Virus record (IMG/VR): IMGVR_UViG_3300027763_000027
Location: 62,001-126,000 of that record
Reading direction: 5' to 3' (one strand)
From: a virus
Length of the DNA: 64,000 nucleotides
The position numbers and the translations under genes were made by a program. Numbering within the stretch: position 1 is the stretch's first letter; each line of letters begins with the position of its first letter. The notes beneath the pieces are model-generated. The model had not been told where the DNA came from. It worked only from the letters and a program-made list of their open reading frames with translations, and did not search any database. Below, piece after piece: positions 7,816 through 23,049 of the stretch.

Positions 7816-7822
7816 ATTAAAT

Positions 7823-7829
7823 ATTACAC
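7823..7829 (-). promoter_or_regulatory. Putative late promoter GTGTAAT
   Basis: GTGTAAT on the minus strand with exactly 7 bp to the ATG at 7815. No TTGACA-type -35 is present upstream. Confidence 0.5.
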
Positions 7830-8270: not shown

Positions 8271-8280
8271 AGTAAATACT

Positions 8281-8287
8281 ATTACAC
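8281..8287 (-). promoter_or_regulatory. Putative late promoter GTGTAAT
   Basis: GTGTAAT on the minus strand, 10 bp before the ATG at 8270, in the same context (AATGTGTAATA) as the copy in front of the 1692-residue adhesin. Confidence 0.45.
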
Positions 8288-8337: not shown

Positions 8338-8725
8338 TGGACCCGAGAGGAGTTGAACCTCTGTCTTTTAAAAATCTAAATTAAAATACTACAAGTTTAG
8401 TTCATTTTAATATTTAGCTTCATATAGATAAATAAACAAACATATTCAGCGTATTCTATCTTGAGTATTGCTATCTAAAGAATAGAAAAACTATTAAATA
8501 GCAAACATCTAATTACGCAATATTCCAGTAGATGTGTCGTGGATATCACGCTGTAACTTAAGCTACAGAAGCGGTCTCTTCTACAAGAGAAACTCTTGCA
8601 GAAATATGACCTTTATATTTTGCTGTTTTGGCAGTTAATATAATTGAAACTTTTTAAGGAGTCCTCGATTCAACCTCCACTTGCATTTCAATTTATTTCT
8701 TTAAAATCGAAACCAGTACGGGCCC
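8338..8725 (-). ncRNA. ssrA: tmRNA (transfer-messenger RNA)
   Basis: About 388 bases. The 5' end GGGCCCG pairs with the 3' end CGGGTCC to form a 7-bp acceptor stem (one G-U), followed by the typical CTGGTTTCGA start of tmRNA. The 3' part has a T-arm, GAGG-TTCAACT-CCTC. The discriminator is A and CCA is not encoded. In the middle is a short open frame that resumes at GCC and ends in TAA (8558-8632), giving a 24-residue tag. tmRNA rescues stalled ribosomes and tags the broken product for proteolysis. A phage copy could keep this working, or alter its outcome, during infection. A sigma-70 promoter lies just upstream. The 5' boundary is set by the acceptor stem; the transcript probably starts about 15 bases earlier and is trimmed. 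Confidence 0.9.
8558..8632 (-). other. tmRNA tag-peptide reading frame
   Basis: Reads 24 codons then TAA. The tag begins AKTAKYKGHI and ends VEETASVA. Most bacterial tags end in ALAA or LAA; this one ends SVA, so it may be recognised differently by ClpXP-type proteases. The resume codon GCC follows TTAACT, a usual context, but one codon of uncertainty remains. Confidence 0.75.
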
Positions 8726-8746: not shown

Positions 8747-8774
8747 ATTATACATTTTATTTGAATTTTGGCAA
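8747..8774 (-). promoter_or_regulatory. tmRNA promoter (sigma-70 type)
   Basis: TTGCCA (8769-8774), 16 bp spacer, TATAAT (8747-8752) on the minus strand. Expected start near 8740, giving a short 5' leader before the tmRNA. It overlaps the opposite-facing promoter of the small gene at 8795. Confidence 0.7.
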
Positions 8775-8794: not shown

Positions 8795-8986
8795 ATGGTA
8801 CTACAAGATAAAATATTAAACCTATTAGATCAAATTATTGAAAAGAATATATTGGAAGATTCAATTAATAAAAAGCCAATTGAATCTGGAGATAATTGGA
8901 ACGTATTTTATTTAAAAGTTTTAAAAAATTTGTTACAAGAATTATTTGACAAAAAACAAAATAAAGAGTATTATAAGATCACATAG
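8795..8986 (+). CDS. Small helical protein of unknown function
   Basis: 63 residues from the ATG (MVLQDKILNLLDQIIEKNIL...), predicted mainly helical and acidic/Leu-rich, no recognisable family. An in-frame TTG at 8768 would add nine residues but lies within the promoter. It stands alone on the plus strand between the tmRNA and a candidate structured RNA, and its stop codon falls inside the first pairing element of that RNA. Confidence 0.45.
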   Translation: MVLQDKILNLLDQIIEKNILEDSINKKPIESGDNWNVFYLKVLKNLLQELFDKKQNKEYYKIT

Positions 8987-9268
8987 TCCCCTATTAGGAC
9001 AGTTTATTGATACCAAAAAATCAATTATCAATCCCTGAGATAGCAATGTCCCAAGGGCTGACAACTATTAAAACCTTCATTTGTACATAACATGGCTAAA
9101 GAAGGAAATGTAGCTATAGGCATCGCAGAATGTAGTGATCGAAGCTACCTCTGATCCGTAAGTGCGATGGCCCTTTGTTGCTGAGATCGCAACAAATTTG
9201 GAGTTAAAAGAAAAGTTGGATTGATAATACTCAACCTCAGACTATAATAATCTAGAGGTAAAGCCCTT
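8983..9268 (+). ncRNA. Candidate structured RNA with pseudoknot
   Basis: A 329-base stretch without a gene that holds many exact complementary segments. Long-range pairs: 8983-8988 with 9240-9245 (ATAGTC/GACTAT) and 9024-9034 with 9218-9228 (11 bp, ATTATCAATCC/GGATTGATAAT). Local hairpins: 9121-9127 with 9163-9169 (CATCGCA/TGCGATG) and 9174-9181 with 9189-9196 (TTTGTTGC/GCAACAAA). A crossing pair, 9053-9059 with 9262-9268 (AAGGGCT/AGCCCTT), makes a pseudoknot. I do not recognise the family. The strand is a guess (pairs are symmetrical); plus is chosen because it follows the plus-strand gene. Confidence 0.5.
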
Positions 9269-9315
9269 TTGGATATTAAAGAAAAGTTAAATAATTCAGA
9301 GAAGGACACTAGATA

Positions 9316-16836: not shown

Positions 16837-17436
16837 CTATATAATATCATTATTTTGTAAACTTGTCAACTTATTTTTCAATAAAAGTTTACCTTTATCA
16901 TGTAAGTTGATTGCTGTTTGAGTGCTGATATTAAGAGTTTTACTTATTTTACTCCAAGAAGTTACTTTCTTACCATTAAAATATCTTAATTTAAATACTT
17001 TACATATTCTTTTGTCTTTTACTCTGTCTAAAATTGAAAATACTAAATCGGAGTTTTCTTTATTTATAATTAAATTATTTTCATATTTTATTTGATTATT
17101 TTCTATAATATGATTTATATTCTCGTTGTCCATGCTAATAGTATTGTTTTGTTTGTTTATACAGTTCAAGCAATAATATCTAGCTTGATTACCTAGCCAA
17201 GTCGAAAATTTTACATTCTTATCTGGATTAAAATTTAAAGCCGATTTATATATTACAAAAAGTTTATCATTAATAATATCATCTGGATTAGCCCCAAAAT
17301 CAATTAAATGTTTATAGTATTTTTTAACCATTTGATTAAAAATACCAGTATGACGATTCTCTAGTTCTTTTAATGCATCACTATTTGATTCTTTTTTTAC
17401 TTTATTTATTAGATCTATGTCTGGTATATAATTCAT
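16837..17436 (-). CDS. Sigma-70 family RNA polymerase sigma factor (phage, region 2 + region 4)
   Basis: 199 residues. Region 2 (about 25-95) includes DFGANPDDIINDKLFVIYKS and NVKFSTWLGNQARYY, the core-binding and -10 contact helices. Region 4 (about 140-190) is a helix-turn-helix with YFNGKKVTSWSKISKTLNIS. Regions 1 and 3 are missing, as in ECF and phage late sigma factors. It should redirect host RNA polymerase. The repeated GTGTAAT element in front of structural genes is a good candidate target. Its start overlaps the end of the kinase gene by 35 bases. Confidence 0.75.
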   Translation of the reverse strand: MNYIPDIDLINKVKKESNSDALKELENRHTGIFNQMVKKYYKHLIDFGANPDDIINDKLFVIYKSALNFNPDKNVKFSTWLGNQARYYCLNCINKQNNTISMDNENINHIIENNQIKYENNLIINKENSDLVFSILDRVKDKRICKVFKLRYFNGKKVTSWSKISKTLNISTQTAINLHDKGKLLLKNKLTSLQNNDII

Positions 17437-18524: not shown

Positions 18525-19625
18525 ATGGAATTTAAACAAGGTTTAGGTTACGATGATATACAATTATTACCAAATTTTTCGGACATAACTTCAAGAAAAG
18601 AAATAGATACTACCACAAAAATATCAAGAAATTTTAAGATAAAACTTCCAATTATATTATCTCCTATGGATACAGTATCATCTGTAAAATCATGCATTAA
18701 AATGAATCAAATAGGTGCAGCAGGAGTTCTTCATAGATTCATGTCTCCACAAGATCAAAGAAGTAAATCAAAGATAATAAAAGATGAAAGTAATTTTTGT
18801 ATTACTGCAATAGGATTAAAAGATGCAGAAGAAAGAATTAGACTAACTTCTACATATACAGATATATATTTTCTTGATACAGCTAATGGTTTATGTAAAA
18901 ATGTCGAAGATTTTTTAAGATGGTTTAAAACTTCTAATTTTTCTCAAGATATTATAGTAGGAAACACCTTAACAAAAGAAAGCGTTTACAGATTAGCAAA
19001 TCTTAAAGCTGATGGATTCAGACACTTAATTGGGCCAGGAAGCATGTGCTTGACGCAAATGAAAACTGGCATAGGATGCCCAAGCGTCACTGGTAATTAT
19101 TACGCTTGGAAATCTGTTAGAAATTGGGAGTTATCACAAGTAGATTTATTCAAATACGATAAACCAGATCCATCTAATAGACCAAGCGTTTTAACGGATG
19201 GAGGGATAAGATATCCAAAAGATCTTGTAAAAGCTATTGCTAGTGGATGTGATGCCGTAATCTGTGGTAGGATTTTTGCAGGTCTTTTTGATGTTATAGA
19301 CGAAGAAAATATCATAGAAAAAGACGGAAAAACATACGCTAAATATAGAGGTATGGCAAGCAAAGATGTAGTAGAAGATTACGAATTATATGATGGAACA
19401 AAAAAGAACTTATTTGTAGAAGGAGATTCTACATTAATTGAACTTAATAAAGTTGACACAATTGAAAGTATAGTGTATGATTTTGTTAATGGACTTAGAA
19501 GCGCAATGAGTTACTTAGGATTTAGATCAATAGATGAAATGAGAGGTGGTCTTTGGACTAATAAAATACAAGCGATTCTAAACTCCGCAAACAATATATA
19601 TGAGGGATTTGCACATGGAAAATAA
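18525..19625 (+). CDS. GMP reductase / IMP dehydrogenase family protein, GMP reductase favoured
   Basis: 366 residues, a TIM barrel without CBS domains. Catalytic loop GPGSMCLTQMKTGIGCPSV has the active Cys (near 183); phosphate site LTDGGIRYPKDLVKA; FAG and KYRGMAS near 250-280. From GMAS to the VEGD motif there are only about 24 residues, with no Arg-Tyr flap, as in GMP reductase and unlike the longer flap of IMPDH. GMP reductase turns GMP into IMP; the neighbouring adenylosuccinate synthetase would then take IMP towards AMP. If instead an IMPDH, it would make XMP for GTP supply. The end overlaps the next region without a gap. Confidence 0.72.
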   Translation: MEFKQGLGYDDIQLLPNFSDITSRKEIDTTTKISRNFKIKLPIILSPMDTVSSVKSCIKMNQIGAAGVLHRFMSPQDQRSKSKIIKDESNFCITAIGLKDAEERIRLTSTYTDIYFLDTANGLCKNVEDFLRWFKTSNFSQDIIVGNTLTKESVYRLANLKADGFRHLIGPGSMCLTQMKTGIGCPSVTGNYYAWKSVRNWELSQVDLFKYDKPDPSNRPSVLTDGGIRYPKDLVKAIASGCDAVICGRIFAGLFDVIDEENIIEKDGKTYAKYRGMASKDVVEDYELYDGTKKNLFVEGDSTLIELNKVDTIESIVYDFVNGLRSAMSYLGFRSIDEMRGGLWTNKIQAILNSANNIYEGFAHGK

Positions 19626-20103: not shown

Positions 20104-20321
20104 ACGAAGAAAAATTTCAATTACCAAATACTCCATATGCTAGAGGTACGGATTTTAGTCCAGTAGTTAGAGTATTAGCAAAAATTTCTAGAAATGCTAT
20201 GTGTCCATTGTTAAATAAGAAATTTAAAAAATGTTGCGGAAGTACTGGTCAAAATTATTGTAATAAAGCTAAAGAAAATCTAGAAACATATCTCAATGAA
20301 TTAAAGAATAAAAATGATTAA
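20100..20321 (+). CDS. Small SEC-C-like cysteine motif protein
   Basis: 73 residues. NAMCPLLNKKFKKCCG is close to the SEC-C metal-binding motif (CPCGSGKKYKKCCG) with one Cys replaced, and a fourth Cys follows in QNYC. Its start overlaps the upstream stop by 4 bases and its end overlaps purA by 8. A zinc-binding protein or adaptor is possible; role unknown. Confidence 0.5.
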   Translation: MNEEKFQLPNTPYARGTDFSPVVRVLAKISRNAMCPLLNKKFKKCCGSTGQNYCNKAKENLETYLNELKNKND

Positions 20322-21306
20322 ACATGTAGATATTATATTCGGATTAGCTTGGGGAGACGAAGGCAAAGGCAAAATTAGTTTTAATTTAACCGAAGATTAT
20401 GATTATGTATGTAGATGGAATGGTGGGCCAAACGCTGGACATACAGTTTATATTAATGATAAGAAACTAAAAACACATATTATTCCATGTGGAATTTTCA
20501 AAAATAAAAAAAGCATCATTGGTCCTAATTGCGTTATCAACATAGATAAATTTTATGATGAAATTGAATATTTACAAAAAGAAGGTTTTGATACATCATT
20601 AATAAAAGTTAGCCCAAGAGCTCATATCATTACCGAAAAGCATATACAATATGATTTACAATATTTAAAACCTAAACTTGGAACTACTGGACAAGGTATA
20701 GCTCCAGCGTATTCGGATAAAATGCTCAGAGTAGGAAAACAAGCAGGAAACTACTTAGACAAAAAATACATTTGGGATGGCAAATTAGAAGGAAGAGTAT
20801 TATGTGAAGGTGCTCAAAGCTTTTGGTTAGATATTAATTATGGAGATTATCCTTATGTTACAAGTAGCGAAACTTTACCTTATTCAGCTTGCTCATTAGG
20901 TTTTAGTCCAAAGTTAATAAGAAGTATAATTGGTGTTGCTAAAATTTATGATACCAAAAGTGGAGTAGATCCATTATTTCCAGAATCTTTATTTGAAGAT
21001 CAAGATTTGAATAAAATAATAGAAGAAGGCCAAGAGTTCGGAACCACAACTGGAAGAAAGCGTTTAGTAAATTGGTTAAGATTAGATAAATTAACCGAAG
21101 CCACAATCATTTCTGGTTGCACAAAATTAATTATAAATAAATGTGATATTTTACAAAAACTAGACTTATATAAAGTTTATATTGATAAAGAGCTTTTATC
21201 TTTTAAGACTTTTGATGAATTACACCAAGTTGTATTAAATTATATATATGGGAAAAACAAGCACATTACTCAAATCTTATTTTCTGGAAATAAGAATTAT
21301 ATTTAA
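20314..21306 (+). CDS. purA: Adenylosuccinate synthetase, short (archaeal/PurZ-sized) form
   Basis: 330 residues against about 430 for bacterial PurA; archaeal PurA and phage PurZ enzymes are about 340. Motifs: GLAWGDEGKGK P-loop with the catalytic Asp kept; NGGPNAGHTV; KLGTTGQGIAPAYSDK; LCEGAQSFWLDINYG; YPYVTSSETLPYSA; and TTTGRKRLVNW for IMP binding. It joins IMP and Asp to adenylosuccinate using GTP. Phage PurZ, which acts on dGMP to make 2-aminoadenine DNA, usually has Ser or Gly in place of this Asp, so PurA activity is favoured. Linked with the GMP reductase-like gene it would complete G-to-A conversion, with host PurB for the last step. Confidence 0.85.
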   Translation: MIKHVDIIFGLAWGDEGKGKISFNLTEDYDYVCRWNGGPNAGHTVYINDKKLKTHIIPCGIFKNKKSIIGPNCVINIDKFYDEIEYLQKEGFDTSLIKVSPRAHIITEKHIQYDLQYLKPKLGTTGQGIAPAYSDKMLRVGKQAGNYLDKKYIWDGKLEGRVLCEGAQSFWLDINYGDYPYVTSSETLPYSACSLGFSPKLIRSIIGVAKIYDTKSGVDPLFPESLFEDQDLNKIIEEGQEFGTTTGRKRLVNWLRLDKLTEATIISGCTKLIINKCDILQKLDLYKVYIDKELLSFKTFDELHQVVLNYIYGKNKHITQILFSGNKNYI

Positions 21307-23033: not shown

Positions 23034-23040
23034 GTGTAAT
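23034..23040 (+). promoter_or_regulatory. Putative late promoter GTGTAAT (rightward)
   Basis: GTGTAAT, 9 bp before the ATG of the mucin-like gene at 23050. Confidence 0.55.
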
Positions 23041-23049
23041 ACATAAATA

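What the first reader, a model, noticed from the sequence alone, without database searches (positions are those of the whole stretch)
8338..8725. Phage-encoded tmRNA with an unusual tag
A complete one-piece tmRNA with acceptor stem, T-arm, tag frame and strong promoter. Phage tmRNAs are uncommon. The tag is long (24 residues), rich in Lys and hydrophobic residues, and ends SVA rather than LAA. It might divert tagged proteins from host proteases or supply ribosome rescue when host RNA is degraded. If leaderless messages are common, non-stop events from RNA cleavage may be frequent and rescue more useful.
Basis: partly seen in the sequence, partly recalled or inferred. Interest (0 to 1): 0.75.

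Follow-up and report, generated by a model that had tools for sequence, protein, structure and literature searches.

The report
Phage tmRNA with conserved unusual tag
A large uncultured aquatic phage carries its own ribosome-rescue RNA (tmRNA), whose 24-residue tag ends in SVA and is kept by selection across its relatives, and just upstream, pointing the other way, lies a second, undescribed structured RNA.

Summary
Window 8338-8725, minus strand, is a complete one-piece tmRNA (Rfam RF00023, 114 bits, E 8.5e-44) with encoded tag AKTAKYKGHISARVSLVEETASVA. It lies in a 172-kb IMG/VR phage contig and recurs in about 60 related contigs. All 51 distinct copies keep the G3.U70 pair that alanyl-tRNA synthetase reads, all five T-stem pairs show compensatory changes, and the tag frame is under purifying selection; tags found without the tag as bait agree. 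No SmpB, ClpP or Lon domain was found in the phages searched, so it probably works with host SmpB and proteases. Phage tmRNAs are already known (402 phages in one survey); this is a new variant, notable for its tag. The host is unknown, so diversion from host proteases is untested. The more novel result lies beside it: window 8981-9288 (plus strand), divergent from the tmRNA, encodes a ~308-nt pseudoknotted RNA with its own consensus promoter (38 of 39 relatives), 47 of 76 base pairs changing on both sides among divergent homologues, one copy per genome, no Rfam family. It shares the contig with the tmRNA in 35 of 38 cases of its main subfamily. Its function is unknown.

The parts
8338..8725 (-). 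one-piece tmRNA (ssrA), 388 nt including discriminator A; CCA not encoded
   Evidence: ARAGORN; RF00023 114 bits, E 8.5e-44, full model
8747..8774 (-). sigma-70-type promoter TTGCCA-16-TATAAT of the tmRNA
   Evidence: consensus scan; -35/-10-like boxes upstream of many relatives, not all
8719..8725 (-). 5' half of acceptor stem GGGCCCG, with G3
   Evidence: G3.U70 in 51 of 51 distinct relatives; pairs 5 and 6 change in step
8339..8345 (-). 3' half of acceptor stem CGGGTCC, with U70
8346..8362 (-). T-arm
   Evidence: 5 of 5 stem pairs with two-sided changes, 98% paired
8644..8678 (-). pseudoknot 1 upstream of the tag
   Evidence: PK1a 100% paired; PK1b with a shifted pairing in part of the relatives, read by eye
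8558..8632 (-). tag frame: resume codon GCC, 24 codons AKTAKYKGHISARVSLVEETASVA, stop TAA
   Evidence: purifying selection
8551..8568 (-). helix 5 around the tag stop codon
   Evidence: 100% paired in relatives
8397..8535 (-). pseudoknot 2-4 region (PK2b helix 8529-8535 with 8505-8511, 100% paired; PK3 and PK4 placed by the Rfam alignment and by eye)
   Evidence: the PK3 region aligned poorly across relatives
8946..8974 (+). promoter TTGACA-17-TATTAT of the neighbouring RNA-B
   Evidence: TTGACA-N17-TAnnnT-N6..8-ACATA in 38 of 39 relatives
8981..9288 (+). RNA-B: undescribed ~308-nt pseudoknotted structured RNA, divergent to the tmRNA; ends inferred from the promoter and from conservation
   Evidence: covariation, model R1 homologues, no Rfam family

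Best explanation
The phage makes its own tmRNA from a sigma-70-type promoter. It folds into the one-piece tmRNA architecture, is (inferred) trimmed, given CCA and charged with alanine by host alanyl-tRNA synthetase through its G3.U70 pair, and works with host SmpB and EF-Tu to enter ribosomes stalled on messages without a stop codon. Translation resumes at the GCC codon and adds Ala plus AKTAKYKGHISARVSLVEETASVA. Ribosomes are freed for phage translation while infection degrades RNA. Selection on the peptide itself implies that the tag is read by something, most simply a host protease that accepts the SVA end (ClpXP-like, or Lon as for the long Mollicute tags), so the tag is probably a phage-customised degron rather than an inert tail. 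Shown: sequence, structure, conservation, selection on the frame. Inferred: expression, charging, use of host SmpB, rescue, degradation.
For: Full-length RF00023 match and ARAGORN; about 60 relatives with the same molecule; G3.U70 in 51 of 51 distinct copies with compensatory acceptor changes; 5 of 5 T-stem pairs with two-sided changes, and H2, PK1a, H5, PK2b 97-100% paired. Tag frame: dN/dS 0.14 over 24 codons, 0.33 outside the codons fixed by the search pattern, 0.08 when the variable codons 19-21 are also left out; the other two frames hold stops in every copy. Tags of copies found through the 3' part of the tmRNA (AKTGKYKGHISAKVSLVEETVSVA, AKTAKYKGHVSARVSLVEMTESVA) or through RNA-B (AKTAKYKGHLSTRVSLVEETTSVA, AKTAKYKGHLSARVSLVEEAVSVA) agree. 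No SmpB in this contig or in 17 relatives of 78-136 kb; no ClpP or Lon in 9. Literature: the tmRNA of mycobacteriophage Wildcat is its most highly expressed lytic gene (PMC7474061).
Against: No expression, charging, tagging or degradation data for this phage. Host unknown, so dependence on host SmpB cannot be checked; the contigs may be incomplete, so SmpB could lie outside the assembly. PK3 varies and aligned poorly (65% paired in the naive alignment). A degron role rests on resemblance of the last residues only. The sequences are related by descent, so counts of changes are not independent events.
Confidence: 0.75

Rival explanations
1. The molecule rescues ribosomes, but the tag stabilises or diverts tagged products away from the host's usual tmRNA protease.
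For: Ends SVA, not LAA; pelagiphage comparators keep LAA (GEDNFALAA, ANFNEYALAA); the peptide is under selection.
Against: VA endings are not inert by analogy (LVA variants are used as degradation tags, PMC9382460; phage G has QVA). No benefit of stable truncated proteins is evident.
Confidence: 0.15
2. A decoy or dominant-negative tmRNA that titrates host SmpB or blocks host trans-translation.
For: Mycobacteriophage DS6A carries little more than the tRNA-like domain, and a similar molecule inhibits tmRNA (PMC4131195).
Against: Here the tag frame and helix 5 are kept and the tag evolves under purifying selection, which a decoy would not need.
Confidence: 0.05
3. A remnant of a host ssrA picked up at an integration site, without function.
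For: ssrA is a common prophage attachment site (discussed in PMC9004378 and PMC12656738).
Against: Complete and conserved in about 60 contigs with compensatory changes; tag pattern absent from the GTDB genome contigs.
Confidence: 0.03

Closest known systems
Bacterial one-piece tmRNA (ssrA, Rfam RF00023)
   Same: Acceptor stem and T-arm, G3.U70, helix 2, pseudoknots, resume codon, tag and stop codon in helix 5
   Different: Encoded by a phage; 24-residue tag ending SVA; no matching tag pattern in GTDB genome contigs
Bacillus phage G tmRNA
   Same: One-piece, phage-encoded, tag begins AK and ends VA (AKLNITNNELQVA)
   Different: 13 residues; tag otherwise unrelated; no DNA similarity between the two tmRNAs found
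Pelagiphage tmRNAs and Melnitz (PMC9004378)
   Same: Aquatic phages that carry ssrA
   Different: Two-piece, permuted; canonical LAA tags in Mosig and HTVC008M
Mycobacteriophage tmRNAs (Bxz1, Wildcat; PMC4131195, PMC7474061)
   Same: tmRNA of a lytically growing phage; in Wildcat very highly expressed
   Different: Records not held here, so tags could not be compared
GOLLD and ROOL RNAs (PMC12286853), compared with RNA-B
   Same: Ornate structured RNAs, known from phages (own knowledge)
   Different: RNA-B is shorter (~308 nt) and matches neither model nor any other Rfam family

Membership tests
tmRNA (RF00023) | Full-length match to the covariance model above the gathering score | tested here: met
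   114 bits against 47
tmRNA (RF00023) | tRNA-like domain with acceptor stem, T-arm and G3.U70 alanine identity | tested here: met
tmRNA (RF00023) | Tag reading frame with resume codon and stop codon | tested here: met
   Frame open and under purifying selection; translation itself not tested
tmRNA (RF00023) | Four pseudoknots | tested here: inconclusive
   PK1a and PK2b well supported; PK1b, PK2a, PK3 and PK4 only partly resolved in the alignment
tmRNA (RF00023) | Partner protein SmpB available | tested here: inconclusive
   Not found in this contig or 17 relatives; expected from the host, which is unknown
tmRNA (RF00023) | Charging with alanine and trans-translation | not testable with these tools
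   needs biochemistry
Canonical SsrA degron (ClpXP) | C-terminal LAA | tested here: not met
   Ends SVA in every complete copy; whether SVA works as a degron in the host is unknown
Two-piece (permuted) tmRNA | Circularly permuted gene | tested here: not met
   ARAGORN and Rfam give the one-piece order
Any Rfam family, for RNA-B | Match to a covariance model | tested here: not met
   No match within RNA-B at E below 1, two subfamilies tried

The most novel reading that the evidence does not exclude
RNA-B is a new class of pseudoknotted phage RNA, and together with the tmRNA it forms an RNA module with which this widespread phage clade takes over translation quality control: the phage tmRNA replaces host tagging with its own tag, and RNA-B acts on the same machinery. 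That RNA-B is a real, uncatalogued structured RNA is by itself about 0.9 likely; the functional link to the tmRNA is only suggested by co-occurrence and neighbourhood.
Probability: 0.15. Interest if true: 0.8.

Novelty: new variant of a known kind. Interest (0 to 1): 0.55.

Why it matters
The tag is conserved as a peptide across a diverse phage clade, so it makes testable whether phages rewrite the degradation signal of trans-translation rather than only add rescue capacity. The neighbouring RNA-B adds a structured RNA with strong covariation and no known family, found once per genome in phages that are common in public aquatic metagenomes.

Tried and rejected
Host identification: tag pattern in GTDB genome contigs, no match; TerL in GTDB genome contigs, no relative; nearest named phages by TerL and DNA polymerase are distant, at most 32% identity; RNR alpha is 53% identical to pelagiphage Mosig, but such genes move between phages and do not name a host. 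Similarity of the tmRNA to named phages or plasmids: only short chance pieces. A MrMagoo piece suspected to be a tmRNA was not one. Records of Bxz1, Wildcat and Cali were not held. RNA-B pairing with the tmRNA: not better than shuffles, 43 of 200 reach it. RNA-B as a gene: longest open frame 72 residues. RNA-B on the minus strand: the window copy folds better there (z -3.4 against -1.7), but the alignment favours the plus strand (28 against 24 two-sided pairs) and the promoter is on the plus strand. My first PK1b helix was misplaced inside helix 2 and redone.

Full report
What is there. ARAGORN and Rfam agree on a one-piece tmRNA at 8338-8725, minus strand, the only gathering-level RNA family match in the window. 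The window is bases 62001-126000 of a 171,916-base virus record with terminase, DNA polymerase III alpha-like polymerase, helicase, RecA-like and ribonucleotide reductase genes, so this is a phage genome and not host DNA. A weak second RF00023 hit in the record is a tRNA.

Is it real and kept? A degenerate pattern for the tag core found 63 IMG/VR stretches; ARAGORN calls a tmRNA in 58 loci including the window, 51 distinct sequences. Acceptor stems change in step (GGGCCCG/CGGGTCC, GGGCGCG/CGCGTCC, GGGCCAG/CTGGTCC, GGGCCTG/CAGGTCC), with G3.U70 in all 51. All five T-stem pairs have two-sided changes. PK1a, helix 5 and PK2b are 100% paired. Pseudoknots 3 and 4 are placed by the Rfam alignment but vary and aligned poorly across relatives, so I do not claim them as tested.

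The tag. 39 distinct tag DNA sequences give pS 0.265 and pN 0.046. Because the search pattern fixed codons 5-12, I recomputed outside them: dN/dS 0.33, and 0.08 when the variable codons 19-21 are also left out; both other frames contain stops in all copies. Copies reached through the 3' part of the tmRNA or through the neighbouring RNA-B carry the same tag with mild changes, so the conservation is not an artefact of the bait. Every complete tag ends SVA. The tag pattern has no match in the GTDB genome contigs. Comparators read here: phage G AKLNITNNELQVA, Mosig GEDNFALAA, HTVC008M ANFNEYALAA.

Partners. SmpB was not found in this contig or 17 relatives, ClpP and Lon not in 9; the controls rang in the expected bacteria. 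The records may be fragments, so absence is not proven. The host is unknown: no GTDB relative of TerL, although 318 IMG/VR stretches encode one, and named phages are distant.

Distribution. Of 50 records tested, mostly short terminase contigs, 6 carry the tmRNA; of the five longer than 80 kb, four do. In this record it lies about 75 kb from the terminase, so short terminase contigs would miss it.

How it most likely works. By established knowledge of tmRNA: alanine charging through G3.U70, SmpB-guided entry into a stalled ribosome, resumption at the GCC codon and release at TAA. An A at -4 of the resume codon is present, as in E. coli (own knowledge). Selection at the peptide level argues that the tag has a reader. 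The most likely reader is a host protease; this is inference.

The neighbour. The divergent stretch 8981-9288 (plus strand) is 89% identical in two relatives, more than the tmRNA itself at 85%. Its alignment of 35 sequences supports 83 pairs in 13 helices including a pseudoknot (alignment columns 93-99 with 309-315): 98.5% of cells paired, 28 pairs with two-sided changes against 7.5 in shuffles and at most 6 in slid controls. A covariance model finds one copy per genome in relatives, including a GC-richer subfamily some 10-17 kb from the tmRNA. Across 19 divergent copies 47 of 76 pairs change on both sides, with 89.6% paired against at most 44% in slid controls (that alignment is fitted to the model, so its pairing leans towards it). 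TTGACA, 17 bases, a -10 box and 6-8 bases precede ACATA in 38 of 39 copies. It has no Rfam match, no long open frame and no hit in seven named phages. In 35 of the 38 contigs of the main subfamily the tmRNA or its tag lies on the same contig (my count); for the second subfamily it is 15 of 35, many of them short contigs.

Compared with what is known. Phage tmRNAs were found in mycobacteriophages and phage G (PMC4131195), in 402 of 18,146 phages (PMC9004378) and in huge phages, some of which also carry SmpB (PMC7162821). This one is a tmRNA by the features tested and a variant by its tag.

Noticed in passing
window 8981-9288 (+): RNA-B, a ~308-nt pseudoknotted structured RNA with its own promoter and no Rfam family, divergent to the tmRNA.
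   Followed up: yes
RNA-B, alignments A3 and A5: A short motif (TCAAAAGAAAAGT and TCAAAGAAAAGT; TCAATTGGGAAGT and TCATTGGGAAGT in the second subfamily) occurs twice in most copies (33 of 35 and 6 of 8), and the two copies differ together between the subfamilies.
   Followed up: partly
window, ORF starts: Sigma-70-like promoters often end within a few bases of the ATG and Shine-Dalgarno-like motifs are scarce, which suggests leaderless messages; loose patterns in AT-rich DNA, no control run.
   Followed up: partly
window 7822-7829, 8280-8287, 23034-23041 and others: GTGTAATA occurs 8 times against 2.55 expected, in several places just before an ORF; possible phage late promoter, with a sigma-factor-like gene at 16837-17436.
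   Followed up: partly
window 18525-19625 and 20314-21306: GMP reductase/IMP dehydrogenase-like and adenylosuccinate synthetase-like genes close together; the latter keeps WGDEGKGK and scores below the PurZ cut-off; perhaps guanine to adenine nucleotide conversion in an AT-rich phage.
   Followed up: partly
record G000, TerL at L012:671-2515: The terminase belongs to a family with 318 IMG/VR relatives and no relative found in GTDB genome contigs or close named phages.
   Followed up: partly
L253 (record G094): A GC-rich fragment matching the ends of the tmRNA model in an RNA-B contig, unlike the clade tmRNA and not confirmed by a second Rfam scan; possibly a chimeric assembly or chance.
   Followed up: no
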